Positions 1 to 64,000 of a stretch of 64,000 nt of DNA are shown here, one piece after another. Position 1 is the first letter of the stretch; each line of letters opens with the position of its first letter. Made by a program: the position numbers and the translations under genes. Below the pieces are notes generated by a model. The model saw nothing but the letters and a program-made list of their open reading frames with translations, did no database searches and was not told the origin of the DNA. Source of the stretch: Pontibacter aydingkolensis (GTDB lineage Bacteria; Bacteroidota; Bacteroidia; Cytophagales; Hymenobacteraceae). The stretch is taken from contig NZ_JAHYXK010000003.1 in assembly GCF_019443125.1 (NCBI RefSeq), positions 310,001 to 374,000 on the forward strand, written 5' to 3'.

Positions 1-1
1 T

Positions 2-1771
2 ACCGCCAATGGCAGCCGCGCTTATATGGTGGATTACTACAACTGGATCTCGGCTGGCGATATGCAGATTGGTTTCTCTTTCATGATTGACCAACTCACG
101 CTGCTGATGATGCTGATGGTAACAGGTATCGGTTTCTTTATCCACCTGTACTCTGCCGGTTACATGAGCCACGATGAGAACTTCGGTAAGTTCTTCTCTT
201 TCATCAACCTGTTCATGTTCTCGATGTTACTGCTTGTAATGGGCTCTAACTACGTGATGATGTTCGTGGGTTGGGAAGGTGTTGGTCTTTGCTCTTACCT
301 GCTGATCGGATTCTGGAACAAGAACACCAACTATAACAATGCCGCCAAGAAAGCTTTCGTGATGAACCGAATCGGTGACTTAGGCTTCCTGCTGGGCATC
401 TTCCTGATCTTTATCACATTCGGTTCGGTTAGCTATCCGCAGGTTTTCGCTGAGGCTGCCCGTTACACAGGAGGTATAGATTCTAACATTATGATTGCCA
501 TTACCCTGCTGCTGTTTGTTGGTGCTATGGGTAAGAGTGCTCAGCTTCCGTTGTTTACTTGGTTACCGGATGCGATGGCGGGTCCTACCCCTGTTTCTGC
601 CCTGATCCACGCGGCAACCATGGTTACGGCTGGTATTTACATGGTACTTCGTTCGAATGTGCTGTACGTACTGGCTCCTACTTCACTTGAGATTATCGCT
701 ATTATTGGTGTGGCTACAGCTGTATTAGCTGCCACTATCGGTCTGGCGCAGAATGATATTAAAAAGGTGCTGGCCTACTCTACTGTTTCGCAGTTGGGTT
801 ACATGTTCCTGGCACTTGGTGTGATGGCGTTTTCTTCGTCTATCTTTCACGTACTTACGCATGCTTTCTTTAAGGCGCTGCTGTTCTTAGGTGCCGGTTC
901 GGTTATCCACGCCATGAGCAACGAGCAGGATATCCGTAACATGGGTGGCCTGCGCAAATACCTGCCAATAACCTTTATCACCTTCCTGATTGGTACGCTT
1001 GCCATTGCCGGTATACCTCCGTTTGCCGGTTTCTTCTCTAAAGATGAGTTGCTGGCGCACGTATGGGAGCACAATAAAGTACTGTGGGGATTAGGTATGT
1101 TAGCCTCTTTCATGACGTCCTTCTACATGTTCCGTTTGGTATTCCTGACTTTCTTCGGAACGTTCAGAGGAACGGAGTCACAGAGAAGTCACCTGCATGA
1201 GTCACCAATGTCTATGACAATACCGCTTATCGTGCTGGCTATACCTTCTACGATAGGTGGTTTCCTTGGCATTCCGGCTGTGTTTGGCGAGAATATGCAC
1301 GTGCTGCAAAACTACCTGGCTCCTATTTATGGCTATGCCCAGGTAGCTAACGCCGCCGCCGTTGCACCAATTCACATAGATCATGCTACGGAGTGGATGC
1401 TAATGGGTATTTCAGTGGCAGTGGCAGTAATTGCCGCCACCATTGCTTATGTAATGTATGTAAGCAAGAAAACGGTTCCTGTGGCCGAAGGCTCTAAGCT
1501 TTCTCCTATCCATAACCTGATCTATAACAAATACTACATCGACGAACTGTACGACACTGTTATTGTGCGTCCGGTTATGTGGATGTCATCTGCTTTCCAC
1601 CGCTTCCTGGATGTGCTTGTGGTAGATGGTATCGTGAATGGCTTTGGCAAGTTTGTGATGCAGAGTGGTCGCTCAATGCGCTATGCACAAAGCGGAGCCA
1701 TAGGGTTTTATATTATGGTAATGGTGTTCAGCATCGTTCTGATTCTATTTTTAAACTTCTTTATCGGATAA
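2..1771 (+). CDS. nuoL: NADH-quinone oxidoreductase subunit L (5' end outside window)
   Basis: Membrane antiporter-like subunit of respiratory complex I, involved in proton pumping coupled to NADH:quinone electron transfer. The frame is open from base 2, before the first internal ATG at 26, so the gene starts upstream. Compared from memory with E. coli NuoL, about 65 N-terminal residues are missing. Visible family features are the GWEGVGLCSYLLIGFW segment, MGKSAQLPLFTWLPDAMAGPTPVSALIHAATMVTAG (proton-channel Lys and His residues) and a C-terminal long-helix/TM region. It lies 12 bp before nuoM in an operon. Confidence in the family is very high; only the 5' end is absent. Confidence 0.96.
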   Translation, partial: TANGSRAYMVDYYNWISAGDMQIGFSFMIDQLTLLMMLMVTGIGFFIHLYSAGYMSHDENFGKFFSFINLFMFSMLLLVMGSNYVMMFVGWEGVGLCSYLLIGFWNKNTNYNNAAKKAFVMNRIGDLGFLLGIFLIFITFGSVSYPQVFAEAARYTGGIDSNIMIAITLLLFVGAMGKSAQLPLFTWLPDAMAGPTPVSALIHAATMVTAGIYMVLRSNVLYVLAPTSLEIIAIIGVATAVLAATIGLAQNDIKKVLAYSTVSQLGYMFLALGVMAFSSSIFHVLTHAFFKALLFLGAGSVIHAMSNEQDIRNMGGLRKYLPITFITFLIGTLAIAGIPPFAGFFSKDELLAHVWEHNKVLWGLGMLASFMTSFYMFRLVFLTFFGTFRGTESQRSHLHESPMSMTIPLIVLAIPSTIGGFLGIPAVFGENMHVLQNYLAPIYGYAQVANAAAVAPIHIDHATEWMLMGISVAVAVIAATIAYVMYVSKKTVPVAEGSKLSPIHNLIYNKYYIDELYDTVIVRPVMWMSSAFHRFLDVLVVDGIVNGFGKFVMQSGRSMRYAQSGAIGFYIMVMVFSIVLILFLNFFIG

Positions 1772-1783
1772 GGTTCTAAGAAG

Positions 1784-3277: not shown

Positions 3278-4660
3278 ATGACTTCGATTATACTTCTATC
3301 CGTATTTGGCATCGCGAACCTGTTTATAGGTTTCATGAAGTCTAAGAGGATACTGTTGCCTCTGGCGATATTGTTTTTAATAGTAGTGTTTGGTGTTAAC
3401 CTGCTTAGCTGGAACGACACCCAAAGCTACTTCAACAACATGCTGACTATCGACAATTATGCGGTGGCTTTTACAGGCATCATGGTGCTTACTACCTTGC
3501 TACTGGTTCCATTCTCGCAGCGCTATGTAAACGAAAAAGACTCAAACCTGGCAGAATACTACAGCCTGTTGCTGTTCTCGCTGGTAGGCGCCATTATGAT
3601 GGTAAGCTACGAGAACATGTTAATGCTTTTCGTGGGTATCGAGATCCTGTCTATTGCTATGTACGTAGTGGCTGGAAGCAATAAAAAGAGCTTACGTTCT
3701 AATGAGGCAGCTCTGAAGTATTTCCTGATGGGTGCTTTCTTTACAGGCATTCTGCTGTTCGGCATCGTGATGATTTACGGTGCTACAGGTACGTTTAATA
3801 TTACAGAGATCGGTGCTGCACAGATCGCAACAGGCGGTGTGATGAACTCCATGTTCATACTTGGCTTGCTACTAGTAGTGATCGGTATCTCTTTTAAGAT
3901 CTCAGCTGCTCCATTCCACTTCTGGACTCCGGACGTGTACGAAGGTGCTCCAACATTCTTCACAGCGTTTATGTCGACGGTAGTAAAGACTGCCGGTGTG
4001 GCTGCTTTCTTTAAATTGATGGCTGCTGCATTCGCAGCATCTTACGCCGCCTGGTTCCCGACGATGATCGCCATTACGGTACTTACACTGGTGGTTGGTA
4101 ACATTGGCGCAGTGGTGCAAGGCAGTGCAAAACGTATGCTGGCTTACTCCAGTATATCGCATGCCGGTTACCTGCTTATGTCGCTGATCGCGTTTAACGA
4201 AAGCTCTGCTTCGTCTATACTTTTCTACTCGCTGTCTTATGCTACTGCCTCTATTGCGGCTTTTGGCGTACTGATGCTGGTTGCCGACCAAAAAGGGTCT
4301 GAAAAGTATGAAGCCTTTAACGGCCTTGGCAGAACAAATCCACTGCTGGCTTTCGCTATGACGGTATCGATGCTATCATTGGCTGGTATTCCGCTTACAG
4401 CTGGTTTCTTTGCGAAGTTTTTCGTGTTCTCTGCTGTATTGCAAGACTCAAGCCTGATGTGGCTGGTTATCATTGCAGTTATACTTGCAGCTGTGGGTAT
4501 CTACTACTACTTCAGAGTTGTAATTGCCATGTACATGCAGCCAGCAGACAATTATGAGAAAATACGTGTGGGAAGCTTTGCATCTTTCACTCTGATTTTT
4601 ATTACGGTTTTAACCATACTACTTGGTATAGCTCCTGCACTAGTGAGCGATATCCTATAA
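3278..4660 (+). CDS. nuoN: NADH-quinone oxidoreductase subunit N
   Basis: Third antiporter-like membrane subunit of complex I, 460 residues, all hydrophobic helices. The signature segment FKISAAPFHFWTPDVYEGAPT (channel Lys and His) and RMLAYSSISHAGYLL are visible. It is the last gene of the nuo operon: a strong hairpin terminator follows about 15 bp after the stop. The first codons contain the window-wide word TATACTT in the Ile-Leu frame (ATA CTT), an example of that word shaping codon choice. Confidence 0.97.
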   Translation: MTSIILLSVFGIANLFIGFMKSKRILLPLAILFLIVVFGVNLLSWNDTQSYFNNMLTIDNYAVAFTGIMVLTTLLLVPFSQRYVNEKDSNLAEYYSLLLFSLVGAIMMVSYENMLMLFVGIEILSIAMYVVAGSNKKSLRSNEAALKYFLMGAFFTGILLFGIVMIYGATGTFNITEIGAAQIATGGVMNSMFILGLLLVVIGISFKISAAPFHFWTPDVYEGAPTFFTAFMSTVVKTAGVAAFFKLMAAAFAASYAAWFPTMIAITVLTLVVGNIGAVVQGSAKRMLAYSSISHAGYLLMSLIAFNESSASSILFYSLSYATASIAAFGVLMLVADQKGSEKYEAFNGLGRTNPLLAFAMTVSMLSLAGIPLTAGFFAKFFVFSAVLQDSSLMWLVIIAVILAAVGIYYYFRVVIAMYMQPADNYEKIRVGSFASFTLIFITVLTILLGIAPALVSDIL

Positions 4661-4675
4661 AGTATAATTACATGT

Positions 4676-4718
4676 AAAACAGAAGCGGCTGCCCCAATAA
4701 GGCAGCCGCTTCTGTTTT
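4676..4718 (+). terminator. Intrinsic terminator of the nuo operon
   Basis: The arms AAAACAGAAGCGGCTGCC and GGCAGCCGCTTCTGTTTT pair perfectly around the short loop CCAATAA, giving an 18-bp stem ending in a T tract. It lies 15 bp after nuoN. The flanking A and T tracts would let it work in both directions. Confidence 0.93.
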
Positions 4719-4789
4719 ATACTTCTACTCTAAACTAACTGGGCTGCAGGCAAGTACACAGAATATCCATCCAACTAAAATTAAATAAG

Positions 4790-5467
4790 ATGTACGGAGC
4801 CTGTTTATACTTTAAAATTGCTTTACCTATACTCTTAACCTTTACAAGTTGCAACGGCCAGAGCGCTCAAAACCAGCAAACAGATGCTGAAGCACTACCT
4901 CAGGATGGGCCCAGAGTAGGTGGCCGCTGCGAAACCTGCGAACTTATGTATGTTGGTATGCCGAAAAGTATAAACGCTACAGACACCAGCGCTGCCTGGA
5001 ATAGCGGAGCACAAAAGCTGATCTTAACCGGTACAGTTTACAAAACCGATAAAAAGACACCAGCCAAAGATGTTATACTTTACTACTGGCAAACAGATGA
5101 AAATGGCATCTATGCAGATAAGCCAGACTTAGATTCTAAAGTAAGGCGGCATGGGTATATCAGAGGCTGGTTAAAAACAGATAAGCAAAGCAGGTATACC
5201 ATCTATACTATTCGACCTGGCTCCTACCCTAACAGCAACAATCCGCAACATATACACATGCTGGTAAAAGAATCAAGGTTCCCGAATGAGTATTACATTG
5301 ATGATATACATTTTGAGGATGACCCGCTGCTCACAGACAGGGTAAAAAAGCAAATGCACAACATTGGTGGAAATGGAATTGTGAATATTCAGCAGCAGAA
5401 TGGTATGCAGAAAGCAAACCGTGATATTATACTTGGCTTGAATGTTTCTGATTACCCGAAGAAGTGA
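4790..5467 (+). CDS. Intradiol ring-cleavage dioxygenase-like lipoprotein
   Basis: A 225-residue protein with an N-terminal hydrophobic segment ending in a lipobox-like FTSC (Cys21), so probably a lipoprotein. Residues 70-160 match the beta-sandwich core of intradiol dioxygenases (protocatechuate 3,4-dioxygenase family): WQTDENGIY, RGWLKTD, TIRPGSYP and HIH. The four expected Fe(III) ligands are identifiable as Tyr108, Tyr146, His154 and His156, so it is likely catalytic. Such secreted family members are common in Bacteroidota and their substrates are mostly unknown. No aromatic-degradation genes lie nearby, so a catechol pathway role is not supported. It is a single-gene unit after the nuo terminator. 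Confidence 0.82.
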   Translation: MYGACLYFKIALPILLTFTSCNGQSAQNQQTDAEALPQDGPRVGGRCETCELMYVGMPKSINATDTSAAWNSGAQKLILTGTVYKTDKKTPAKDVILYYWQTDENGIYADKPDLDSKVRRHGYIRGWLKTDKQSRYTIYTIRPGSYPNSNNPQHIHMLVKESRFPNEYYIDDIHFEDDPLLTDRVKKQMHNIGGNGIVNIQQQNGMQKANRDIILGLNVSDYPKK

Positions 5468-5515
5468 TGGGTTGTTGGTTATTGGATGTTAGTTGTTGAT
5501 TATTAGTTCTTCGTT
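5468..5515. repeat. TAAC/GTTATT-type dispersed simple repeat
   Basis: Degenerate runs of GTTGTTGGTTATTGG / TTAGTTGTTGATTATTAG directly after the dioxygenase-like gene. Similar text occurs at 20392-20417, 21688-21718 and 52636-52723, always intergenic. This is probably a low-complexity intergenic repeat family; no gene is visible in it. Confidence 0.6.
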
Positions 5516-5575
5516 TTTCGTGATCGTAAAGACGTAGTTTCGTTTTTCGTTGATGGTTATTCGTTGTTCGTGCAT

Positions 5576-5599
5576 GTAGAGACGCAATACTTTGCGTCT
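5576..5599. repeat. Dispersed 24-bp hairpin repeat, copy 1 of 4
   Basis: Starts GTAGAGACGCAATACTTTGC and contains the near-palindrome GACGCAATACTTTGCGTC, which can fold into a hairpin. Identical or inverted copies are at 14658-14681, 14720-14743 and 21657-21680. All copies are intergenic. This looks like a small REP/MITE-type repeat. Confidence 0.85.
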
Positions 5600-5827
5600 T
5601 GCTTGCTAAAGGGTAGTGTATATAAAAGTTCGCAACAGAAGCCATCTGAAAGTATAAAGTATGGCTCACGGAAGTCTGAAGACTTCTCTCCGTAACACGG
5701 CGCAAGTCACGCTAACGCTTAAGACCTGCGCCAGGAGAATGAATCGACAAAATTCAGCAGTACCGAATATTGTATACTAACTGTGCAATAGACCCATGAG
5801 GTTACACACCATACTTATCAACCTAAC

Positions 5828-5952
5828 TTATCCACATATCCACAAAAGTTACCTGTTTATACTTTCTAAAGCCGATGGCAAAGTATAAATGAGGTGTAAG
5901 AATCAACAGTTATCAACAAAGCCTAAGTGGATAAGTGTGAAAGTGTGGATAA
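5828..5952. other. DnaA-box cluster (candidate oriC or DnaA-binding locus)
   Basis: Two perfect 9-mer DnaA boxes lie in opposite orientation: TTATCCACA at 5828-5836 and TGTGGATAA at 5944-5952. Three one-mismatch boxes lie close by or between them: ATATCCACA (5836-5844), TTATCAACA (5910-5918) and AGTGGATAA (5926-5934). I noticed no other perfect box in the window. The site sits in a gap between convergent genes and next to the aspS terminator. No dnaA, dnaN or parAB is in the window, so a datA-like titration or regulatory site is also possible. Confidence 0.6.
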
Positions 5953-5998
5953 AAGCAAAGGCCTGCCTCCAAAACTGGAAGCAGGCCTTTGCTTTTAT
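5950..5998 (-). terminator. Bidirectional terminator downstream of aspS
   Basis: The arms ATAAAAGCAAAGGCCTGC and GCAGGCCTTTGCTTTTA pair around CTCCAAAACTGGAA, just after the aspS stop codon on the minus strand. It has flanking A and T tracts. Its left edge touches the last DnaA box. Confidence 0.9.
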
Positions 5999-6013
5999 GT
6001 TGATAAACCGCTG

Positions 6014-7774
6014 TTACTGATGCGGAATATTTTTCATTCTTATGTGTAATTCGTCCAGCTGCGTTCCCGAAATTGGTGAAGGCGCGTCGATCATTACATC
6101 ACGGCCAGAGTTGTTCTTAGGGAAGGCGATGTAATCGCGGATTGACTCGGAACCACCAAACAACGAGCAAAGTCTGTCGAAGCCAAAGGCGATACCACCG
6201 TGCGGAGGAGCACCATACTCAAAAGCGTTCATCAGGAAGCCAAACTGTGCCTCGGCCTCTGCATGGGAAAAGCCCAGCAAGGTAAACATCTGCTCCTGCA
6301 GCCTGCGGTCATGGATACGGATCGAGCCGCCGCCAACTTCTACACCATTGATCACCATATCGTAAGCATTCGCCCTGATATCACCCGGACGGTCATCGAT
6401 CAACTCGATATCTTCTGGTTTAGGTGACGTGAACGGATGGTGCATGGCGTGCCAGCGGTTAGAATTCTCATCAAACTCCAGCAACGGGAAGTCAACAACC
6501 CAAAGCGGTGAAAACACATTTTTATCGCGCAGGCCAAGGCGCTCCCCCATCTCTAGGCGAAGCTCGTTCAGAGCCTTGCGGGTTTTGTTTTTGTCACCGG
6601 CAAGTATAAGTATAAGGTCGCCACGTTCTGCATGGAAAGCGCTGCCCCATTGCTGCAAATCACCTGGAGAATAGAATTTATCTACTGACGATTTTATACT
6701 TCCGTCCTCATTAACTCTGGCATAAACCAAACCTGTGGCACCTATCTGAGGACGCTTTACAAAATCTGTCAGCTCATCAAGTTGCTTTCGAGTGTAGTAG
6801 GCAGCACCTTTTGCGTTTATACCAACTACCAATTCAGCGTCATCAAACACTTTAAAGCCTTTGTTCTTTACCACGTGGTTCAGCTCTACAAAACGCATAT
6901 CGAAGCGGGTATCCGGTTTATCAGAACCGTAGTACTTCATGGCATCGGCATAAGTCATGCGGGGCAGTTTGCCCAGTTTTACGCCTTTTACCTTATCGAA
7001 CAGGTGCACAATAAAGCCTTCGAATGTATTCAGGATATCTTCCTGCTTTACAAAAGACATTTCGCAGTCTATCTGTGTAAATTCCGGCTGGCGGTCGGCG
7101 CGTAAATCTTCGTCGCGGAAACACTTCACGATCTGGTAATACCTATCAAAACCAGACACCATCAGTAACTGCTTAAACGTTTGCGGCGACTGTGGCAGGG
7201 CGTAGAACTCACCAGGGTTCATACGGCTAGGTACCACAAAATCGCGGGCACCTTCCGGCGTAGATTTAATAAGAACCGGTGTTTCTACCTCTATAAAGTA
7301 ATGATTGTCCAGATAATCGCGGGTGGCACGCATCATGCGGTGGCGCATTTCCAGGTTACGGCGCACAGGGGTACGGCGCAGGTCCAGGTAGCGGTATTTC
7401 ATGCGCAGGTCGTCGCCTCCGTCAGTCTCGTCCTCGATCAGGAATGGCGGCAACTTGGCAGGGTTAAGTACTTCCAGTTTGTGCACTACGATCTCGATAG
7501 CACCGGTAGGAATTTTGTCGTTTTTAGAATAGCGCTCTACAACTTTACCAACTACTCTTATTACATACTCACGGCCAAGCGTACGTGCCTGGTCTATCAA
7601 GCCTTGTGGTGTAACACCCTCTTCGTAAGTTAATTGCGTAATGCCGTAACGGTCACGCATATCTACCCACAGCATACCGCCTTTATCGCGCAGGCGCTGT
7701 ACCCATCCGGTTAAAATAACTTCTTCACCAACGTTGTCGAGGCGCAATTCGCCACAAGTATGAGATCGGAGCAT
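6014..7774 (-). CDS. aspS: Aspartate--tRNA ligase
   Basis: Class II aminoacyl-tRNA synthetase that charges tRNA(Asp), cytoplasmic, 586 residues from the chosen start. It has an N-terminal OB-fold anticodon-binding domain ([20 protein letters not shown]), class II motif 2 ([18 protein letters not shown]), a bacterial GAD insertion (about residues 290-410) and motif 3 (GIAFGFDRL). I take the ATG at 7774 ([11 protein letters not shown]). A longer frame could start at a TTG at 7798, but that TTG lies inside a TAnnTTTG promoter box, so it is almost certainly upstream of transcription. It is monocistronic, with a strong terminator. Confidence 0.97.
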
Positions 7775-7795
7775 AGTATCTTGTATAGTTTTATG

Positions 7796-7803
7796 CAAAT
7801 GTA
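7796..7803 (-). promoter_or_regulatory. Promoter -7 box of aspS
   Basis: On the minus strand this reads TACATTTG, a full match to the Bacteroidota -7 consensus TAnnTTTG, about 20 nt before the aspS ATG at 7774. No clear -33 TTTG is found at the usual distance. Confidence 0.6.
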
Positions 7804-7845
7804 ATAAATTGTACTTATCGTTTACTTTAACAAAGCCTAAGTTGT

Positions 7846-8751: not shown

Positions 8752-8811
8752 TTTTTAGGGGACTTCTGCAATTATACAGCGAAGGTAACACCAAATCTTT
8801 TTAAATACCCT

Positions 8812-8819
8812 TAAATTTG
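8812..8819 (+). promoter_or_regulatory. Promoter -7 box of the GT-C gene
   Basis: TAAATTTG, a perfect TAnnTTTG match, 21 nt before the ATG at 8841. An in-frame TTG at 8817 lies within the box, so it cannot be the start codon if this promoter is used. Confidence 0.6.
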
Positions 8820-8840
8820 CACCTGCACAACCATGACCCT

Positions 8841-10478: not shown

Positions 10479-10501
10479 TAGAGAAGTATACTTTTATCGT
10501 T

Positions 10502-10556
10502 TCATTTCGAACGCAGGTCCCTTTCGACTCTCGTCTCAGGCATGTCCGAAATGACT
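10502..10556. repeat. Short inverted-repeat element sharing 29 bp with the 13.2 kb element
   Basis: The ends TCATTTCGAA and CGAAATGA are inverted. The interior at 10518-10546 is identical over 29 bp to 13260-13288 (includes CTTTCGACTCTCGTCTCAGG). It lies between convergent genes. I interpret it as a reduced copy of a non-autonomous repeat. Confidence 0.75.
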
Positions 10557-10601
10557 TATTGCACTTACCCAGATAGTTAGAAGGAACTAGTTCATTTAAA
10601 G

Positions 10602-10997: not shown

Positions 10998-11042
10998 CAG
11001 CTTTTGTTAGCCATTGCAAGGGTGTAGCAGCAACAGCAATTG

Positions 11043-11680: not shown

Positions 11681-11693
11681 TAAATTATAAAGA

Positions 11694-11837: not shown

Positions 11838-11853
11838 ACTATCTCAGACTGCA

Positions 11854-13421: not shown

Positions 13422-13426
13422 CAAGT

Positions 13427-13882
13427 ATGGCAACAGACTTTTTATCGATACACAGCGACGAGCATTACATGCAGCAGGCATACCTGCAGGCACAACAGGC
13501 ATTTGAGGAAGGTGAGATTCCGATTGGGGCTGTGGTAGTGGCCAACAACCGTATTATTGCCAAAGCCTATAACCAAACTGAAAAACTGAACGATGTAACG
13601 GCCCATGCCGAGATGCTGGCCCTAACAGCTGCTGCTGAATACCTGGGTAACAAATACCTGAACGAGTGCACCCTTTATGTTACCGTAGAGCCCTGCGTGA
13701 TGTGCGCCGGCGCCAGTTACTGGGCACAGCTAAAGCGTGTCGTATTTGGAACATCGGAGCCCAAGCGCGGTTATAGACATGTAGGTAATTTGCTGCATCC
13801 TAAAACAGAGATGGTGAGTGGCATTATGGCCCAGGAGTGTGCTGAGTTAATGTCTTCTTTCTTTGCGGGTAAAAGAAATTAA
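13427..13882 (+). CDS. tadA: tRNA-specific adenosine deaminase
   Basis: Cytidine-deaminase-fold zinc enzyme of 151 residues, probably converting A34 to inosine in tRNA(Arg)ACG. The motifs are complete: HAE (His60, Glu62) and PCVMC (Cys90, Cys93), plus the family C-terminal segment with HPKTEMVSGIM. The start fits the family length and lies 5 nt after a full promoter box, so the mRNA is predicted to be leaderless. A related guanine-deaminase role cannot be fully excluded, but the motif context favours TadA. The sodA promoter lies within and just after its 3' end. Confidence 0.9.
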   Translation: MATDFLSIHSDEHYMQQAYLQAQQAFEEGEIPIGAVVVANNRIIAKAYNQTEKLNDVTAHAEMLALTAAAEYLGNKYLNECTLYVTVEPCVMCAGASYWAQLKRVVFGTSEPKRGYRHVGNLLHPKTEMVSGIMAQECAELMSSFFAGKRN

Positions 13883-14775: not shown

Positions 14776-16977
14776 TTAGTTCTGATTTGCCTTATAAGCT
14801 GCTACACCGGCATCCAGGAACTTCACAAAGTTGTTTACATTCAGGTCGTAGGCAATAGGTTTTACCAGCACGTTCTCTTGTGCATCCATCAGCACATAGT
14901 ACGGCTGCGCATTTACATTAAACTTTGTGATTTGGTAATCAGAGTATTTTTTGCCTATGGTAGCTTTCTCTTTGCCGTCGTACTCGCTGATGTATTTCTC
15001 AGATTCTGCCAGCTCAGTTTTATCGTCCACATACAAGGCCACAATTATATAATCTTCGCGCAGGCGTTTTAATACAGCCGGGTCAGACCATACGTTGGCT
15101 TCCATTTCGCGGCAGTTAACGCAGCCATGGCCTGTAAAATCGATAAAGATTGGCTTGCCCTGCGCTTTTGCACATTTCTTTGCCTGCTCTAAGTCAAAAT
15201 AGCCTTGCAAGCCGTGCGGCAGGTGCAGAAAATCGCCATACTTCGGCGGCTCACAAAGCTGATTTGCAGTACCGGCTGCAACCGTAGTGCCACCCCCGTT
15301 CTGCCTGATGATCTTGTTAATATCGAAATCCTGGGTTGTTTGTGGCGGAAGGTATCCTGACAATGCTTTAAGCGGAGCGCCAAACATGCCAGGTATCAGA
15401 TAAACTACAAAAGCAAATGTTGCCAAAGCCAGGAACAAACGCGGTACCGTAAGATGCTTCAGGTCCGAGTCGTGAGAGAATTTAAGCTTGCCTAGAAGGT
15501 AAAAGCCCATCAAGGTAAAAATTACGATCCATAAGGCTAAGTATACTTCACGGTCCAGGATACCCCAGTGGTATACCTGGTCGGCCACACTAAGAAATTT
15601 AAGCGCCAGCGCCAGCTCTATAAAACCCAACACCACCTTTACCGAGTTTAACCAGCCACCAGACTTTGGCAAACTGCTAAGCCACGACGGGAAAACGGCA
15701 AATAGTGTAAACGGCAACGCAAACGCCAGCGAAAAACCAAGCATACCTACTACAGGGCGCAAGGTTTCGCCTCCGGCAGATGCCACTAGTATACTTCCCA
15801 CAATAGGGCCGGTGCACGAAAAAGAAACCAGTACCAACGTAAGCGACATAAAAAACACGCCTAACAGTCCGCCCCTATCAGCCTGTGCGTCTACTTTAGT
15901 TAAGAACGAGCTCGGTAACGTTATCTCGAACAGGCCAAAGAACGACATGGCAAAAATTATGAACACAGCAAAGAACAGCAGGTTCGGGAACCAGTGCGTA
16001 CTGATAAAATTAGCGCCATCAGCCCCAAACAACTTGGCTACTATGGTGCCCACCAAAGTATAAATGGCGATAATGGAAACTCCATAAACCAAGGCTTTAA
16101 AAATACCCTCTCCTCTGTTCTGGCTGTTACTGGTAAAAAAGCTTACCGTCATGGGTATCATCGGGAAAACGCAGGGAGTTAGCAAGGCGCCCAGGCCAAA
16201 TACAAACGCAATCAGCATAAAAGACCACAGCCCTTCTGCCTCTTCTTCCTGAACTGGCTCAGCTAAAATAGCTGGCACCTTTTCTGATGTCTCATCGGAG
16301 GTAGTAGCGGCAACTGTATCTGTAATTGCCTCTTCTGCTGTTATATTATCCGTAGGCGCAGTGGTTACCTCATCGGTACCAAATACAGGGGAAGCAGCAG
16401 GTTGTTGCGTATTGTTTAATGCTTCCTGCTTTTCCGGTGCTTGCTCTGTTGTTCCAGCCTTTGTTGCTGGCGCTACTTCACCTCTTATATTTAGCTGTTT
16501 ATTAGTAAACGTAAAGTCATCATCAAATGGAATGCAGCGGCCATCAACATCGGTACACACCTGGTATTCGTAAGTGCCTTTTACCAACAGGTCTGGTTTT
16601 AAAACGCGTATTTTCTGCCTGAACTGGGCTGTGCCCACAAAGTAAGTATACTCTCCCTCCCACAGGTCGTCATACTTCTTCTTGGGGTTAACAGGCTTTA
16701 TTTTGCCTACCAACTCGTATGAAGGATGCTTCTGGAACTTGAACTCCGTAACCATTGGCCCCAGGTCCGGGTCAAAATCAGAAGAGTACAGATACCAGTC
16801 TTTATCAATGCGAACGTTAAAGATAAGCTCAACCTCCTCGCCTACGGCAGCCTGTTTTTTAAATACGTCGTAGCTCCAGGTGGCAGGCTTTAGTACCTGC
16901 GCCTGTGCAAAGCTAACTGCCAATAATAAAAACAACCATGTAGCTATCAGTTGTTTTACTACTATTTTCTTGTTCAT
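14776..16977 (-). CDS. dsbD: DsbD-type thiol:disulfide interchange protein
   Basis: A 733-residue protein passing electrons from cytoplasmic thioredoxin to periplasmic thiols. It has a signal peptide, an N-terminal periplasmic domain with a Cys pair (VCTDVDGRC), a Pro/Thr/Glu-rich linker, an eight-helix membrane domain with conserved Cys (LLTPCVFPMIPMT and SFSCTGPIVG) and a C-terminal thioredoxin-like domain with CVNC. I choose the ATG at 16977 (MNKKIVVKQL); the frame extends 17 codons upstream, but those add a second hydrophobic stretch. The linker between domains is longer than in E. coli DsbD (from memory). Confidence 0.9.
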   Translation of the reverse strand: MNKKIVVKQLIATWLFLLLAVSFAQAQVLKPATWSYDVFKKQAAVGEEVELIFNVRIDKDWYLYSSDFDPDLGPMVTEFKFQKHPSYELVGKIKPVNPKKKYDDLWEGEYTYFVGTAQFRQKIRVLKPDLLVKGTYEYQVCTDVDGRCIPFDDDFTFTNKQLNIRGEVAPATKAGTTEQAPEKQEALNNTQQPAASPVFGTDEVTTAPTDNITAEEAITDTVAATTSDETSEKVPAILAEPVQEEEAEGLWSFMLIAFVFGLGALLTPCVFPMIPMTVSFFTSNSQNRGEGIFKALVYGVSIIAIYTLVGTIVAKLFGADGANFISTHWFPNLLFFAVFIIFAMSFFGLFEITLPSSFLTKVDAQADRGGLLGVFFMSLTLVLVSFSCTGPIVGSILVASAGGETLRPVVGMLGFSLAFALPFTLFAVFPSWLSSLPKSGGWLNSVKVVLGFIELALALKFLSVADQVYHWGILDREVYLALWIVIFTLMGFYLLGKLKFSHDSDLKHLTVPRLFLALATFAFVVYLIPGMFGAPLKALSGYLPPQTTQDFDINKIIRQNGGGTTVAAGTANQLCEPPKYGDFLHLPHGLQGYFDLEQAKKCAKAQGKPIFIDFTGHGCVNCREMEANVWSDPAVLKRLREDYIIVALYVDDKTELAESEKYISEYDGKEKATIGKKYSDYQITKFNVNAQPYYVLMDAQENVLVKPIAYDLNVNNFVKFLDAGVAAYKANQN

Positions 16978-19396: not shown

Positions 19397-19402
19397 CAAA
19401 GT

Positions 19403-19858
19403 ATGAAGCGCCACGAAAGCCTGGTACCCATATCGAGACAACACCACAGTGGTTTATTAACTGCCAGGCTCCTGCAATACGGCGCTCCGCCTTATAAAGA
19501 AATGCCCACAACCCCGGAAGCTAAACGTAGCTATACTTTAGATTTTCTGGACGAGCACTTAAGGCCGCATTTTAAACTGGAGGAGGAAACTGTATTTATA
19601 CTCGCTCCGGAAGTATCAGAAGAACTGGCAAAGCAAACAAAGCACCTGCTGGCACAGCATCGTGAATTGGAGAAACTTATACTTGCCTTGCCTGATGTAA
19701 AAATGGAAGCGCTGCCAGATAAACTGGACGAGATAGGAAAACTCCTGGAGCAGCACATTCGCCACGAAGAACGCGTATTTTTTGAACAGCTGCAGCAGGA
19801 ACTTCCGGATGAAAAACTGAAAGTGCTGCAAGAAATGGTACTGCAGCATCTAGGATAA
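19403..19858 (+). CDS. Hemerythrin-domain protein
   Basis: A 151-residue all-helical protein. The ligand pattern of di-iron hemerythrin-like bundles is present: His15, His52/His56 with Glu60 (HxxxE), His86, and His118 with Glu122 (HxxxE). It probably binds a di-iron centre and senses or stores oxygen, iron or NO. It is 6 bp downstream of the CNNM gene, in the same operon, linking it loosely to metal homeostasis. The start ATG is embedded in the common word AAGTATG. Confidence 0.82.
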   Translation: MKRHESLVPISRQHHSGLLTARLLQYGAPPYKEMPTTPEAKRSYTLDFLDEHLRPHFKLEEETVFILAPEVSEELAKQTKHLLAQHRELEKLILALPDVKMEALPDKLDEIGKLLEQHIRHEERVFFEQLQQELPDEKLKVLQEMVLQHLG

Positions 19859-37210: not shown

Positions 37211-37873
37211 ATGAAAACATCAAACAAAGACCTGTTACATAAGCTGCCTTATCTTCTGATCTGTATTATGCCGTTGTTTTTATGGGCCTGTGTTTCGTCT
37301 ACCAGGATAACAGGTACCTGGAAAAGCCCTGAAGCCACAAACCAGCAGTATAACAAGATTGTTGTTGCTGCTCTCACAGATAATATCAGGGCCCGGGAAA
37401 CCGTAGAGAACGACATACAAGCACAACTCCAGCGGCGGGGTGTGGCAGCTACTAAGAGTATAGATATATTTCCGCCTACTGCCTCCAGCAAATCAGGGCC
37501 TGATGTAAACCTGTTAATCGACAGACTCAAAGACGATGGTTACGATGGCATCATGACGGTAGCGTTAATAGATGAACAAACAGAGACACGCTATGTGCCG
37601 GGCACTTACAGCTATGCCCCCGTAACACGCTTTGGCTGGTACGGCAGGTTTAGAGGTTATTATACCTACTGGTATCCTACACTTTATGACCCTGGTTATT
37701 ACACAGAGGATAAAGTATACTTTCTGGAAACCAACTTGTATGATGAAAGTACTGAGAATCTTGTCTGGTCAGCACAATCGCAGTCTTACAGCCCTTCCAG
37801 TTTAAGAAATGCCTCTGAAAAGCTCGCTGAGATCACAGTGGGCAGGATGGCGCAGGATGGGTTGATCAGGTAA
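37211..37873 (+). CDS. DUF4136-like lipoprotein
   Basis: A 220-residue lipoprotein (LWAC, Cys27). The order of TWKSPEATNQQYNKIVVAALTDN, ETVENDIQAQLQRRGV, an aromatic Tyr/Trp-rich middle (RFRGYYTYWYP) and a C-terminal LYDESTENLVWSAQS fits DUF4136-like outer-membrane lipoproteins of Bacteroidota. Function unknown. It diverges from the amidohydrolases. Confidence 0.7.
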   Translation: MKTSNKDLLHKLPYLLICIMPLFLWACVSSTRITGTWKSPEATNQQYNKIVVAALTDNIRARETVENDIQAQLQRRGVAATKSIDIFPPTASSKSGPDVNLLIDRLKDDGYDGIMTVALIDEQTETRYVPGTYSYAPVTRFGWYGRFRGYYTYWYPTLYDPGYYTEDKVYFLETNLYDESTENLVWSAQSQSYSPSSLRNASEKLAEITVGRMAQDGLIR

Positions 37874-44620: not shown

Positions 44621-47600
44621 ATGGCAGAAGAAACAACAAGGAGGCTTAAACAGGTTGCGACTACTTTAAACATTGGTACATCTACCATTGTGGACTACCT
44701 CTCTGCTAAAGGTTTTGACGTGGAGAACAGGCCAACCACCAAGATCACAGCAGAACAGTTCAATATGCTGGCTAAAGAATTCGCATCCTCTATGCAGGAC
44801 AAGCAGGAGGCAGAGGAGCTGAATATCGGCAAGAAACCGCAGAGCAACCAGGTTATCGAGTCGGACCCACAGCACCACGCAGAAGTTAGCAAGCCTGCCG
44901 ACTCAGAACAGGAACTGCAGATCAAAACTGTACACCAGCCAAAGCCGGCAGCAGAAGAGCCAAAGGCACCTGAACCTGCTAAAACAGAAGAGCCTGCTAT
45001 TGAAAGCAAGCTTCCGGGCATCAAAGTTTTAGGTAAGATCGAATTAGACGCTAAAGGCCGTCCGGTTCAGAAAAAGCCAGAGCCAAAAGCAGAAGCGCCT
45101 GCACCTGCAGCAACACCTGCCCCGGCACCTGAAGCAAAAAAAGAAGAAGCCCCGAAACAGGAAGAAGTAAAGGAAAAACCAGCCGAAAAGCCACAAGAGC
45201 CAGTAGCTGAAAAACCTGCTGCTCCTGTTGCAGAGGCCCCCAAAGCACCAGAGCCTAAACCAGAGGCACCAGCTGCCCCTAAAGCGGAAACACCGCAGCA
45301 ACCACCAGTTGCCGAAAAGCCTGCTGAAACTCCTAAAGCCGAAACAACTACACCGCCTGCTGCACAGCAAGCACCTGCAACACCTGCCCCGGCACCAACC
45401 GCTGAGCCAGCTGCTGCAGATAACGAGAATAAAAGACCAATAGAAACGATTACAGGAAAAGCCGACCAGCTTAAAGGTCTGACAGTACTTGGCAAGATAG
45501 AATTGCCAACAGAGTCCAGAAGAAAAGGATCTAAGCCAGTAGCATCTTCTGACGAGAAGAAAGGCAAAAAGAAAAAACGTAAGCGCATCATGGTGGCCAC
45601 AGAAGGCCAGCAGCCAGGTGGCCAACCAGGACAGCAGCAAGGCCAACGCCCACAAGGTGGAGGCCCGCAGCAAGGCGGACGTCCTGGAGACAGACCGGGC
45701 ACAGGTAACCAGCGCCCAGTAAGACCTGCACAACATAAAGGCGGGCCACGCAATGCACCAGCTCCAAGACCTGAAAAGAAAGAAGTAACTGATAAGGAAA
45801 TTCAGGAGCAGATTAAAGCAACGCTTGCTAAGCTTAGCGGTGGCAAAGGAGGCGGTGGTAACCGCGCCAAGTATCGCCGCGAGAAACGCTCTGCAATTGC
45901 CGATGCAACTGAAGAGCGCCGTATGCAGGAGCAGGCTGAGTCTAAAACACTCAAGGTGACAGAGTTTATCTCTGCCAACGACCTGGCCTCGCTGATGGAT
46001 GTAAGTGTGAACGAAGTTATCAAGGTGTGTATGCAGCTTGGCATGTTCGTATCCATTAACCAGCGCCTCGATGCCGAAGCCATCACTATTATTGCAGATG
46101 AGTTTGGCTATGATGTTGAGTTTATGACATCGGAAGAAGAGCAGGCCTTGGAAGAAATGCAGGAAGAGAACGAGGAGGACCTGGAAGAACGCGCTCCGAT
46201 CGTAACGATCATGGGCCACGTTGACCACGGTAAAACTTCCTTACTCGACTACATTCGTAACGCAAACGTAACTGCCGGTGAGGCCGGTGGTATTACGCAG
46301 CACATTGGTGCCTATAAAGTAAAAACAGAAAGCGGCCGTACCGTCACTTTCCTGGATACTCCTGGTCACGAGGCCTTTACAGCCATGCGTGCTCGTGGTG
46401 CGAAAGTAACAGACGTTGTAATTATTGTAGTAGCAGCTGACGACTCGGTGATGCCTCAGACAAAAGAAGCTATCAACCACGCTCAGGCAGCCGGTTCACC
46501 AATAATTATTGCACTTAACAAAATAGACAAACCAGGCGCTAACCCGGATAAAGTTCGTGAAGAGCTTTCTCAGATGAACATCCTGGTAGAAGAATGGGGC
46601 GGTAAATACCAGTCTCAGGAAGTGTCGGCTAAAACCGGACAAGGTATACCAGATCTATTAGAGAAGGTATTGCTGGAGGCAGAATTGCTTGAGTTAAAAG
46701 CTAATCCGAATCGCCAGGCAATTGGTACGGTAATCGAAGCATCGCTTGATAAAGGCCGTGGCTACGTGGCTACTATGCTGGTACAAACAGGTACACTTCA
46801 CATCGGTGATATCGTACTGGCAGGTTCGCACTACGGTAGAGTAAAAGCGATGACAGACCACCGTGGCAGAAAAATGAAAGAGGCAGGCCCATCTACTCCG
46901 GTACAGTTACTTGGCCTGGATGGAGCACCGCAGGCAGGCGACAAGTTTCTGGTGATGGAATCTGAGCGTGAGGCCCGTGAAATTGCTTCTAACCGTTCGC
47001 AGATGCAGCGTGAGCAAAGCTTGCGTACCCGTAAGCACATTACACTGGATGAGATTGGTCGTCGTTTGGCAATTGGTACATTCAAGGAGCTTAACGTGAT
47101 TGTAAAAGGTGACGTGGATGGATCGGTAGAAGCACTTTCTGACTCATTATTGAAACTATCTACTCCTGAGGTTCAGGTAAGTATCATCAACAAAGGCGTG
47201 GGTGCTATCTCTGAATCTGACGTATTACTTGCTTCAGCTTCTGATGCGATCATTATCGGTTTCCAGGTACGTCCATCACAGAACGCACGCAAACTGGCAG
47301 AGCAGGAACAGATCGATGTTCGTCTGTACTCTATCATCTACGATGCGATCAACGAGGTTAAAGACGCCATGGAAGGTATGCTTGCCCCTACGCTGAAAGA
47401 AGAGATTGTTGGTAACGCAGAAGTACGCGACGTATTCAAAATCACGAAAGTTGGTACAATTGCCGGCTGTATGGTTACAGACGGAGTTATCCAGCGAAAT
47501 GCGAAGGTACGTTTAGTACGCGATGGCATCGTAGTTATGGATGGTGAGATCCTGGCCCTGAAACGCTTTAAAGACGATGTGTCTGAAGTGAGACAAGGCT

Positions 47601-47695
47601 ACGAGTGCGGTATCAGCCTGAAAAACTATAATGACATACAGGAAGGAGATATCATCGAAGCTTACACAGAAAAAGAAGTGAAGCGTAAGCTTTAA
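44621..47695 (+). CDS. infB: Translation initiation factor IF-2
   Basis: A 1024-residue GTPase that places fMet-tRNA on the 30S subunit. An N-terminal IF2-N-like domain is followed by a long low-complexity linker (about residues 100-400) rich in Pro, Ala, Glu and Lys, then a Gly/Gln-rich stretch. The GTPase domain begins with GHVDHGKTS (532-540), then DTPGHEAF and NKIDKPG. C-terminal domains II-IV are complete. It is the last gene of the operon, with a strong terminator. The linker makes long false frames on the other strand. Confidence 0.97.
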
Positions 47696-50642: not shown

Positions 50643-50676
50643 CCTTTTTTAAACCCAATCCCGACCCTTGTAAAGT

Positions 50677-52167
50677 ATGAGTATAGCCAAGAAATTGGTC
50701 GGGCAGACTGCTGCCTATGGTTTAAGTAGTATCGTAGGCAGAGCATTAAACTACCTGCTTGTACCTGTTTATACACGTGTATTCCTGCCCGAGGAGTATG
50801 GTGTCGTTTCCTATCTGTATGCTTTCGTTGCTTTCTTTAATGTGGTGTATACTTATGGTATGGAGACTGCTTTTTTCCGGTTTGCCAACAGGCCGGAAAC
50901 TGACCCCAAAGCAGTATATAACCGTGTGCTTAGTGCTATACTTCTCAGCAGCTCGGTATTTACGGGTTTACTTCTTCTCCTGTCAGGATATATCGCCGAC
51001 TACATTGGTTACCCAGACCGGCAGGAGTTTATTATCTGGTTAGCCCTAGTATTAGCCATAGATGCAATTGTAGCAATACCCTTCGCCTGGCTACGACACC
51101 AGAACAAGGCAATTAAATTCGCAACTATAAAGCTTTCGAACATCCTGATAACAGTTGGTGCTAACCTGCTATTCCTGGTGGTATTCCGCCATATATATGA
51201 AGGAAAATACCTGCAGGAGCTGAGGCCGTTGGTTACGTATCTGTATGATCCTGATTTTGGAGTAGGCTATATATTTGTTATCAACCTGGTGGCAAATGCC
51301 TTGCTTCTGCCTATGCTCTGGCGGGAGTTTCGCATATTCAGGTTTAAGCTTGACCTGGAGCAACTAAAGCCAATGCTTATCTATGCTTACCCACTGCTTT
51401 TCATGGGGCTTGCAGGAATGGTAAATGAGGTAATAGACCGTATTTTACTGGAGCATTGGCTGCCTGAAAGTTTTTATCCGGGTATGAGCAATATGGCCGC
51501 GGTAGGTGTGTACAGTGCCTGCTATAAACTTGCCATATTTATGACGCTAGCCATTCAGGCTTTTCGTTATGCGGCAGAGCCATTTTTCTTTTCTAAAGCC
51601 CAGGAAAAAGATTCTCCCAAAGCTTTTGCTCTTGTTATGAAGTGGTTTGTGATTGTTTGCACTTTCATATTCCTGTTCATCTCTGTTAATCTGGAAGACT
51701 TCGCCTATTTTATAGGCACAGAATACTGGGATGGCTTAATGGTAGTACCTGTTTTGCTGCTGGCAAACCTGTTCCTGGGCGTATACTATAACTTATCGGT
51801 GTGGTTTAAGCTGACGGATAAAACAAAGTATGGTACTTACATCAGTTTTGGAGGCGCCGCCATCACTATACTTTTCAACCTGCTGCTCATACCTGTACTT
51901 GGATATATGGGCTCGGCCATTGCTACTTTTATCTGTTACTTTAGTATGGCTCTTGCAAGTTACCTGCTTGGCAACCGCCACTACCCTATTCCATACCCTG
52001 TAAAAACCATTGCTGCGTACATTTTGCTGTCAATTGCACTCGTATGGTTGGCTTTGGGCGTAGAAATTGATAACTTCTGGCTGCGTCATGCGTTTCATCT
52101 GGCTGTGTCTGCTGCTTTTCTGGTGGTAGTGTGGCTACGTGAGCGTTCCCGCTTCCTTACATTTTAA
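50677..52167 (+). CDS. Polysaccharide flippase (MATE/Wzx-like)
   Basis: A 496-residue membrane protein with about 14 helices, N-terminal [31 protein letters not shown] typical of O-antigen/lipid-linked oligosaccharide flippases. It probably moves lipid-linked glycan across the inner membrane. Its neighbour at 52784 makes nucleotide sugars. The ATG is embedded in AAAGTATG, one of several starts using that word. Confidence 0.88.
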
Positions 52168-62033: not shown

Positions 62034-62041
62034 TATCTTTG
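62034..62041 (+). promoter_or_regulatory. Promoter -7 box of maeB
   Basis: TATCTTTG, a perfect TAnnTTTG match, 122 nt before the ATG; implies a leader of about 115 nt. Confidence 0.5.
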
Positions 62042-62163
62042 GAGGCTCAATTTTGGATTAACGCAAAAATCTTATGAAATTGGTCTTTAGCGAGATATAT
62101 TTTACAACAGCTATAAGTGTTGGTCTACATTGAGCAGTAACAACACAAACCACGACGCATAGA

Positions 62164-64000
62164 ATGATGATTAAAGTAAACAGAGAAGACGCCTTGAACT
62201 ACCACATGCAGGGCCAACCCGGCAAGATAGAGGTAGTACCTACAAAAATGGTGAGCACGCAGCACGATCTTGCGCTAGCTTACTCGCCAGGCGTTGCAGA
62301 ACCGTGTAAAGAAATAGCCGCCGATAAAGACAATGTTTACAAGTATACAGCCAAAGGAAACCTGGTTGGAGTAATATCAAATGGTACTGCAGTTCTGGGT
62401 TTAGGAAACATTGGCCCGGATGCATCAAAACCGGTAATGGAAGGAAAAGGCGTACTATTCAAGAAGTTCGCCGGTATCGATGTATTCGATATTGAGATAG
62501 ACTGTACTGACCCAGCCGAATTTGTACGCATTGTAAAATCGCTGGAGCCAACTTTTGGCGGTATTAACCTGGAAGACATCAAAGCACCGGAAAGCTTTAA
62601 GATAGAGAACGCACTGAAAGAGCAGATGACCATTCCGCTTATGCACGACGACCAGCATGGCACTGCCATTATTTCGTCTGCAGCTCTTTTAAACGCCCTT
62701 GAACTTGCCGAGAAGAACATTGGCGAAATTAAGATGGTGATGAACGGCGCCGGTGCCGCTGCCATTGCCTGCGCTAAGCTATATGTTGCCCTGGGTGTAA
62801 AGATGGACAACATTGTAATGTTCGATAAAGAAGGCATTATTCGCCCTGAGCGTAACGACCTGGATATCTACAAAGCTCAGTTTGTGACAATGCGCAAGCT
62901 GGATACTTTAGAGGACGCTATGCGCGATGCTGATGTGTTTGTCGGCTTATCAGCGGGTAATGTTTTGCCACCTGAATATGTAAAACTGATGGCTCCTAAC
63001 CCAATCATTTTTGCATTGGCAAACCCAGACCCGGAGATCCCATACGAGGCAGCAATGGCTACCCGTGAAGATATCATTATGGCAACAGGCCGTTCTGACC
63101 ATCCTAACCAGGTAAACAACGTGTTGGGATTCCCTTACATTTTCAGAGGAGCACTGGATGTACGTGCCACCGAAATAAACGAAGCCATGAAACTGGCAGC
63201 TGTTCATGCGCTTGCAGCGCTGGCTAAGGAGGATGTGCCGGAAATGGTTCATAAAGCTTACGGCGACAATACGATCTCTTTTGGCCGCTTCTACTTAATA
63301 CCAAAACCATTGGACCCACGGTTAATCACAACCGTATCTCCGGCTGTAGCCAAAGCAGCGATGGATAGTGGCGTGGCCCGCATCCCGATCACCGACTGGA
63401 TAAAATATGAACACGAGTTGCAGGAACGCATTGGCATCGACCAGAAGTTAATGTCTCGCATCACAAACCAGGCAAAGGAGAATCCTAAAACAGTGGTATT
63501 TGCAGAGGCAGACCATTATAAGATTCTAAAGGCTGCACAAACTGTAAATGACCAGCGCATTGCCAATCCTATACTTTTGGGTAACCGCAAACGTATTCAG
63601 GCTATCATAGAAGAAAACAACCTGGATCTGGATGGAGTTACCATCATAGACCCATACGAGGAGGATGTAAAACGTGAGAAGTATGCGCAGTTGCTTTATA
63701 AAAAGCGCCAGCGCAAGGGCCTTACCTTGTTTGATGCACGCCGCCAGGTCCGAGACCGTATTTACTTCGGAAGTATGATGGTGGAGTGTGGAGACGCGGA
63801 TGCACTTATTTCAGGCTTAACCCGCGACTACTCTAAAACCATTGTGCCGGCGCTGCAGGTAATTGGTGTTGAGGAAGGCATTAATAAAGTGGCGGGTATG
63901 TACATCATCCTGAACAAAAAAGAGCCATACTTCTTTGCCGACACCACGGTAAACGTTAATCCAACAGCCGATGAGTTAGTGGATATAATTGGCCTTACTG
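62164..64000 (+). CDS. maeB: NADP-dependent malic enzyme with PTA-like domain (3' end outside window)
   Basis: The first 612 residues of a MaeB-type enzyme that oxidatively decarboxylates malate to pyruvate with NADP+. The malic enzyme part is complete: YSPGVAEPC, GLGNIGPDASKPVMEGK, MHDDQHGTA and the nucleotide-binding MNGAGAAAIA. From about residue 430 a phosphotransacetylase-like domain begins (VVFAEADHYKILKAA, LISGLTRDYSKTIVPAL); it is known in this family to be regulatory rather than catalytic. The frame is open to the last base, so about 140-150 residues lie beyond (estimate from family length). The start is ATG-ATG at 62164. Confidence 0.95.
   Translation, partial: MMIKVNREDALNYHMQGQPGKIEVVPTKMVSTQHDLALAYSPGVAEPCKEIAADKDNVYKYTAKGNLVGVISNGTAVLGLGNIGPDASKPVMEGKGVLFKKFAGIDVFDIEIDCTDPAEFVRIVKSLEPTFGGINLEDIKAPESFKIENALKEQMTIPLMHDDQHGTAIISSAALLNALELAEKNIGEIKMVMNGAGAAAIACAKLYVALGVKMDNIVMFDKEGIIRPERNDLDIYKAQFVTMRKLDTLEDAMRDADVFVGLSAGNVLPPEYVKLMAPNPIIFALANPDPEIPYEAAMATREDIIMATGRSDHPNQVNNVLGFPYIFRGALDVRATEINEAMKLAAVHALAALAKEDVPEMVHKAYGDNTISFGRFYLIPKPLDPRLITTVSPAVAKAAMDSGVARIPITDWIKYEHELQERIGIDQKLMSRITNQAKENPKTVVFAEADHYKILKAAQTVNDQRIANPILLGNRKRIQAIIEENNLDLDGVTIIDPYEEDVKREKYAQLLYKKRQRKGLTLFDARRQVRDRIYFGSMMVECGDADALISGLTRDYSKTIVPALQVIGVEEGINKVAGMYIILNKKEPYFFADTTVNVNPTADELVDIIGLT

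What the first reader, a model, noticed from the sequence alone, without database searches (positions are those of the whole stretch)
1..64000. A highly iterated word, AAGTATA/TATACTT, spread through genes and gaps
By hand count the 7-mer AAGTATA or its complement occurs about 130 times here (error perhaps 10). At about 46% GC, mononucleotide expectation for both strands is roughly 11. It occurs within coding sequence in different frames (ATA CTT as Ile-Leu, AGT ATA as Ser-Ile, AAG TAT as Lys-Tyr), in both orientations, and often in gaps. Overlapping palindromic forms AAGTATACTT occur at 10484, 15539 and 37713. The word also carries start codons as AAGTATG (tadA, hemerythrin, flippase). The AT-rich, possibly recent GNAT gene at 26221 lacks it. 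Such words are known elsewhere as DNA uptake sequences, HIP1 in cyanobacteria or chromosome-organising sites; I know of no assigned role for this one.
Basis: partly seen in the sequence, partly recalled or inferred. Interest (0 to 1): 0.8.

Follow-up and report, generated by a model that had tools for sequence, protein, structure and literature searches.

The report
Species-specific DNA password word in Pontibacter
This bacterium's genome carries about ten thousand copies of one seven-letter DNA word, and sister species carry thousands of copies of slightly different words, a pattern best known from bacteria that recognise their own kind's DNA before taking it up; whether that is the job here is untested.

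Summary
The count is right: 60 AAGTATA + 73 TATACTT = 133 in the window, and 10,082 in the 4.72 Mb genome against 528 for the reversed control word. Coding DNA holds 735 where codon shuffles give 104-120. An order-5 Markov model predicts 120 of the 133, but it is trained on the word's own hexamers and is not a fair null.

The new result is comparative. Of 50 Pontibacter genomes I scored 21 as iterating AAGTATA, 12 AGGTATA and 6 AACTATA; two have related words on small samples; nine are poor in the three counted words. Words follow clades (9 changes; 25.6 when shuffled). Four genomes carry two words. Active words are kept at orthologous sites more than control words (88/124 against 459/1250). 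A complete relative shows no clear strand skew. No type IV pilus motor was found. Two methylase families, and less clearly a third, are not shared by all word-bearing genomes.

Best reading: an uptake-type self-recognition word with dialects, read by an unknown, non-pilus receptor (0.5). Rivals: a methylation-linked word, or a chromosome-binding protein.

The parts
1..64000 (.). 133 copies of the word AAGTATA/TATACTT (60 on +, 73 on -), in ORFs and between them
10484..10493 (.). overlapping palindromic pair AAGTATACTT
15539..15548 (.). overlapping palindromic pair AAGTATACTT
37713..37722 (.). overlapping palindromic pair AAGTATACTT
13423..13429 (+).
19399..19405 (+).
50673..50679 (+).
44621..47695 (+). 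IF-2 gene, without a single copy of the word; used as query for the species tree
   Evidence: 0 words in the IF-2 segments of 17 of 17 AAGTATA genomes examined

Best explanation
AAGTATA is an uptake-type self-recognition word. Copies are kept because DNA that carries the word is taken up or recombined better by cells of the same dialect. A receptor that reads TATA plus the three bases before it drifts step by step between lineages, so sister clades iterate AAGTATA, AGGTATA, AACTATA and probably others, with two-word genomes in between. Shown here: the word, the sister words, their clade structure, and the keeping of words at orthologous sites.
For: Thousands of copies on both strands, in and out of genes, far above codon-shuffled expectation. 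Sister words that differ at one or two of the first three letters: AGGTATA 5,748-9,303 in 12 genomes, AACTATA 8,118-13,168 in 6, AAGTATA 4,114-11,818 in 21. Clade structure: 9 changes on the IF-2 tree, 25.6 mean and 20 minimum in 2,000 label shuffles. Two-word genomes G158, G160, G191, G195. Active words kept at orthologous sites: 88/124 against 459/1250 control words in five chosen pairs, and above their controls in 32 of the 33 ordered, overlapping pairs with data. G191's AAGTATA is kept 15/23 in two-word G160 but 5/22 in AACTATA-only G163. No clear strand skew in G174. ComEC in 50 of 50 genomes, DprA in 30 of 30 asked. dprA has 91 words against 37.5 and comEC 256 against 193.2 over 29 genomes after codon correction (related genomes, so a hint). 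Word-poor genomes are larger, 9 of 9 against their nearest word-bearing relative.
Against: Uptake was not and cannot be tested here; I found no report of competence in Pontibacter. The type IV pilus/type II secretion motor family gives only weak partial matches. No reader protein was found. ComEC is present in word-poor genomes too, so uptake genes do not track the word. No excess of inverted word pairs as in Neisseria. Word-depletion of secondary contigs holds for two of three. AACTATA, not a strong word in G000, G189 and G155, is also well kept among them (5-7 of 8-13 sites). IF-2 is almost empty of words and NusA is below the genome rate, so genes differ for reasons not understood.
Confidence: 0.5

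Rival explanations
1. A DNA methyltransferase, with a repair or marking system that reads its mark, writes and keeps the word, as Elhai proposed for HIP1 in cyanobacteria. Dialects are changes of methylase specificity.
For: HIP1 and alternate HIPs go with cognate methylases (PMC4390886, abstract and part of section 18). Words hold adenines on both strands. Type I (PF02384), Dam-type (PF02086) and C5 (PF00145) methylases were not searched for. PF07669 gives at least weak matches in 47 of 50 genomes.
Against: PF01555 has no match in 19 of 50 genomes, 14 of them word-bearing. PF20473 has none in 10 of 50, 5 of them word-bearing. PF07669 has none in word-bearing G166 and G187, and matches above 90 bits in only 24 of 50 (my count). 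The word is not a palindrome. The G181 word (TATATA with an A/T-rich edge) has no C for a C5 enzyme. Stepwise change with two-word genomes is less natural for an enzyme.
Confidence: 0.2
2. The word is the binding site of an abundant chromosome-organising or global DNA-binding protein, whose specificity drifts between clades.
For: Genome-wide spread on both strands, site conservation, higher density outside ORFs.
Against: Dialect change would have to keep pace at thousands of intracellular sites with no transfer advantage; nine genomes of the genus do without. Gaps are more variable than random (sd/mean 1.25), not regular. No candidate protein found.
Confidence: 0.2
3. A Chi-type recombination hotspot or KOPS-type polar guide read by a helicase or translocase.
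For: Chi words are short, over-represented and differ between taxa (recalled). Strand lean of 311:386 over 300 kb of the window's contig.
Against: In 20 stretches of the complete G174 chromosome the strands hold 571 and 573; sorted by the sign of GC skew (my arithmetic) the G-rich strand holds 589 and the other 555. Density of about one per 470 bp exceeds that of known Chi (recalled).
Confidence: 0.05
4. A by-product of base composition, codon usage or mutation bias.
For: An order-5 Markov model gives 120 against 133 in the window.
Against: Codon shuffles give 104-120 against 735; the word is denser outside ORFs and in every frame; sister clades iterate one- and two-letter variants instead; words are kept at orthologous sites.
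Confidence: 0.02

Closest known systems
DNA uptake sequence (DUS) dialects of Neisseriaceae (PMC3630211, passages read; PMC2397512, passages read)
   Same: Asymmetric word in thousands of copies; several dialects with a shared core that follow the phylogeny; a genome with two dialects; words themselves conserved, in permissive places of the core genome
   Different: 7-mer instead of 10-12-mer; no pilus motor found; no excess of inverted pairs; reader unknown; uptake untested; different phylum
Uptake signal sequence (USS) of Pasteurellaceae (listing and abstract starts only)
   Same: Short asymmetric word, thousands of copies on both strands
   Different: Other sequence; type IV pilus type machinery there (abstract of PMC12616744)
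HIP1 and alternate HIPs of cyanobacteria (PMC4390886, abstract and part of section 18)
   Same: Highly iterated word of similar density, replaced by other words in some genomes
   Different: HIPs are GC-rich palindromes with cognate methylases; here asymmetric and A/T-rich, with no shared methylase among three families searched
Riemerella natural transformation (PMC8459023, abstract and sections 19, 20; PMC7965970, passages and section 16)
   Same: Same phylum; ComEC and DprA needed there; essential proteins unrelated to known uptake machines; R. columbina prefers its own DNA
   Different: Only A/T strings were listed there as candidate uptake words; homologues of the novel proteins were not searched for in Pontibacter by me

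Membership tests
DUS/USS uptake words | Short asymmetric word, thousands of copies, both strands | tested here: met
   10,082 copies, 4,868 and 5,214 by strand; shorter than DUS or USS
DUS/USS uptake words | Dialects with a shared core that follow the phylogeny | tested here: met
DUS/USS uptake words | Words conserved beyond their surroundings | tested here: met
   88/124 against 459/1250 in five chosen pairs; 32 of 33 ordered pairs
DUS/USS uptake words | Preferential uptake of DNA that carries the word | not testable with these tools
   needs an experiment
DUS/USS uptake words | Type IV pilus machinery with a pilin receptor | tested here: not met
   PF00437: 18.8-25.9 bits over parts of the model in 50 of 50 genomes, 3 over the 24.9 cut-off, read as another ATPase. 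Pilins themselves were not searched for
DUS/USS uptake words | Competence genes comEC and dprA present | tested here: met
   ComEC over the cut-off in 50 of 50, with a stop inside the match in G166 and G186 and a short frame in G184; DprA in 30 of 30 asked
DUS/USS uptake words | Enrichment in genome-maintenance genes | tested here: inconclusive
   codon-corrected comEC 1.32-fold (24 of 29 genomes above), dprA 2.43-fold (28 of 29); only these two genes tested; genomes are related
DUS/USS uptake words | Inverted pairs as terminators | tested here: not met
   pairs within 60 nt: +- 62, of which 21 are the overlapping palindrome; -- 49; -+ 32; ++ 32. Position relative to gene ends was not examined
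DUS/USS uptake words | Absent from recently acquired DNA | tested here: inconclusive
   secondary contigs: 2, 11 and 20 per 20 kb against 25.4, 34.7 and 16.5 genome-wide
HIP1-type words | GC-rich palindrome | tested here: not met
   the sequence itself
HIP1-type words | Cognate methylase in genomes that carry the word | tested here: inconclusive
   PF01555 and PF20473 missing from 14 and 5 word-bearing genomes, PF07669 from 2; PF02384, PF02086, PF00145 not searched
Chi or KOPS | Strand skew by replichore | tested here: not met
   G174: 589 on the G-rich strand, 555 on the other, GC skew as proxy; a 45:55 lean on the window's contig

The most novel reading that the evidence does not exclude
Pontibacter has a DNA-uptake password with evolving dialects, in a phylum where my literature searches found none described, read by a receptor that is not a type IV pilin. 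Two-word genomes catch dialect change in progress, and lineages without the password have larger genomes, as if the password kept foreign DNA out.
Probability: 0.45. Interest if true: 0.9.

Novelty: new variant of a known kind. Interest (0 to 1): 0.77.

Why it matters
Uptake words with dialects are known to me from Neisseriaceae and Pasteurellaceae, where it is debated whether they are selfish or useful. An independent case in Bacteroidota, with 50 sequenced relatives, at least three words, two-word intermediates and several word-poor lineages, would be a replicate on which these ideas can be tested. It would also be a handle for finding the surface DNA receptor of Bacteroidota.

Tried and rejected
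Order-5 Markov as null: rejected, it includes the word's own hexamers. Promoter reading: no sharp preferred distance upstream of ORFs. Terminator pairs: no clear excess. TAGTATA in G171 looked like a second word but is one 5-bp tandem array; dropped. G194, G164 and G163 first looked word-poor from short or unusual contigs; whole-genome counts and the P. populi locus showed them word-bearing. ComEC is the most word-enriched of 372 ORFs (17 words), but amino-acid make-up explains about half: 8.3 or 9.6 expected. The ComEC tree follows the clades and did not single out ComEC as reader. Other Bacteroidota: 69 loci gave AAGTATA 320 against 346 for the control; a screen of 79 loci for any enriched word (top 30 printed) showed outside Pontibacter only codon-repeat-like or weaker words, the strongest (z 12.4) as high as two AAGTATA loci (z 12.7 and 10.4), so that screen would miss a moderate word. 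Five genomes of four other genera of the family gave no comparable word in 20 kb each.
Full report
WHAT IS THERE. The window is 310001-374000 of a 405,844-base contig in a 4.72 Mb genome. Its IF-2 protein matches Pontibacter best: 92% to an uncultured Pontibacter and 89% to P. cellulosilyticus over the best segment. The word occurs 133 times in the window and 10,082 times in the genome, against 528 for the same letters read backwards. It is the commonest and the most over-represented 7-mer in 464 kb. Its one-letter neighbours stay within about 2.3-fold of an order-1 expectation except AAGTATG, 370 against 75. Beyond seven letters there are weak preferences for A before the word and A or G after it.

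IT IS NOT CODON USAGE. Shuffling synonymous codons keeps the proteins and leaves 104-120 copies where 735 are observed (30 shuffles of each kind; ORFs called by me). All six frames are used, and density outside the ORFs is twice that inside.

DIALECTS. Within the genus AAGTATA varies from 770 to 11,818 copies among 50 genomes, while in the 154 genomes of five other genera of the family it stays within about 2.5-fold of the control word, genus g2 being highest. Stretches of the congeners showed why: many low genomes iterate a sister word. Whole-genome counts give AGGTATA 5,748-9,303 in 12 genomes and AACTATA 8,118-13,168 in 6. Four genomes carry two words: G160 (11,674 AAC, 5,110 AAG), G191 (8,118 AAC, 7,552 AAG), G158 (9,116 AAG, 6,094 AAC, also 2,584 AGG) and G195 (10,614 AAG, 3,531 AAC). 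G187 (3,132 AGGTATA, the first letter being free in a 26-kb sample) and G181 (TATATA, dispersed, 26 kb) are less certain words. Nine genomes are poor in the three words counted; two of them keep a trace (G162 AAGTATA 4.0 times and G183 AGGTATA 3.9 times the control). Scoring: 21 AAG, 12 AGG, 6 AAC, 2 other, 9 poor, two-word genomes by their commoner word. All words share TATA, with the variation in the letters before it. Ten of the genomes could be matched to named records by identical sequence, among them P. cellulosilyticus (G155), P. fetidus (G160), P. populi (G163) and P. burrus (G154).

HISTORY. On an IF-2 tree of the 50 genomes the words need 9 changes; shuffled labels need 25.6 on average and at least 20 in 2,000 trials. 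The 12 AGG genomes form one clade; the 6 AAC genomes plus G158 form another. Poor genomes sit in five places of the tree; whether each is a loss is not resolved. They are larger: mean 5.8 Mb (n = 9) against 4.63 Mb (n = 41), and each is larger than its nearest word-bearing relative (sizes mostly as rounded by the tool; G162 is 87% complete; about five independent contrasts). That fits a word that restrains foreign DNA, but other causes are possible.

MAINTENANCE. In aligned orthologous DNA the active word is kept more often than control words of the same letters: 88/124 against 459/1250 in five non-overlapping pairs that I chose from 34 ordered pairs. Of the 33 pairs with data (G147 to G172 had too few words) the active word exceeded its controls in 32; the exception is G161 to G165, 3/4 against 34/41. 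These pairs overlap and are not independent. A word survives best where the partner uses it: AAGTATA of two-word G191 is kept 15/23 in two-word G160 but 5/22 in AACTATA-only G163. Against the simple picture, AACTATA is also well kept among G000, G189 and G155 (5-7 of 8-13 sites), which do not iterate it strongly.

STRAND AND PLACE. Twenty stretches round the complete chromosome of G174 hold 571 and 573 copies on the two strands; sorted by sign of GC skew the G-rich strand has 589 and the other 555 (my arithmetic). Density is lowest, 17 and 30 per 20 kb, at 1.32 and 1.54 Mb. The window's contig leans 311:386 over 300 kb. Gaps between words are more variable than random, sd/mean 1.25. Three secondary contigs gave 2, 11 and 20 words per 20 kb against 25.4, 34.7 and 16.5 for their genomes.

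WHO READS IT. ComEC is found in all 50 genomes, word-poor ones included, with a stop inside the match in G166 and G186 and a short frame in G184. DprA is in all 30 genomes asked. The type IV pilus/type II secretion motor family PF00437 gives only 18.8-25.9-bit partial matches, three of 50 genomes over the cut-off, so a Neisseria-type pilin would have no machine here; that these matches belong to another ATPase is my inference. Methylase families: PF01555 has no match in 19 of 50 genomes, 14 of them word-bearing; PF20473 none in 10, 5 of them word-bearing; PF07669 none in 3, of which G166 and G187 are word-bearing, and above 90 bits in 24. PF02384, PF02086 and PF00145 were not searched. In the window's genome comEC has 17 words in 2.1 kb, first of 372 ORFs by Poisson P. 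Over 29 word-bearing genomes comEC has 256 words against 122.4 at whole-genome density, dprA 91 against 64.7, NusA 57 against 72.8 and IF-2 15 against 172.9. Corrected for amino-acid content and each genome's sampled ORFs the figures are comEC 256 against 193.2, dprA 91 against 37.5 and IF-2 15 against 38.3 (small samples for some genomes, related genomes, so a hint only).

COMPARISON. The closest analogue is the set of DUS dialects in Neisseriaceae: eight dialects, a shared three-letter core, a genome with two dialects, agreement with phylogeny (PMC3630211, passages), and conserved words in permissive core DNA (PMC2397512, passages). The word behaves like these on count, dialects and conservation; it differs in inverted pairs and in the lack of a pilus motor, and uptake is untested. 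So I say it works like such a system and do not file it as a member. HIP1 is the other analogue (PMC4390886, abstract and part of section 18); palindromy is not met.

IN PRINT. Searches for the word (0 papers), Pontibacter with uptake sequence, and DNA uptake sequence with Bacteroidetes (5 papers, none on such a word by title and abstract start) found no description; two broad ones listed only 12 of 1,652 and 12 of 349 papers. Most subscription papers are not in that library. R. columbina prefers its own DNA, but only A/T strings were listed as candidate words (PMC7965970, section 16).

VERDICT. The uptake-word reading is favoured at 0.5; the methylation and chromosome-protein rivals get 0.2 each.

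Noticed in passing
G153, G159, G162, G173, G175, G179, G182, G183, G193: The nine word-poor Pontibacter genomes are larger (mean 5.8 Mb) than the 41 word-bearing ones (mean 4.63 Mb).
   Followed up: partly
464 kb of the window's genome, window included: 17 of 272 ATG-started ORFs have AAGT directly before the ATG (making AAGTATG), where base composition predicts 1.3.
   Followed up: no
window 44621-47695 and its orthologues: The IF-2 gene is almost free of the word in all three dialects: 15 words where genome density predicts 172.9 in 29 genomes; amino-acid content explains only part (38.3 expected).
   Followed up: partly
L240:5284-7392 (comEC of the window's genome): 17 copies of the word in 2.1 kb, the most word-enriched of 372 ORFs examined.
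   Followed up: yes
L045:943-1057 (G171): A tandem array of the 5-bp unit AGTAT, about 22 copies, which mimics a second word in k-mer counts.
   Followed up: yes
G174, stretches at 1.32 and 1.54 Mb: AACTATA falls to 17 and 30 per 20 kb, against 37-84 in the other 18 stretches.
   Followed up: no
comEC of G166, G184, G186: Stop inside the ComEC match (G166, G186, G184) in genomes that still carry the word; sequencing errors were not excluded.
   Followed up: no
G194:C1:1-20000 (L148): A 20-kb contig start with few words in an otherwise word-rich AGGTATA genome; perhaps acquired DNA.
   Followed up: no
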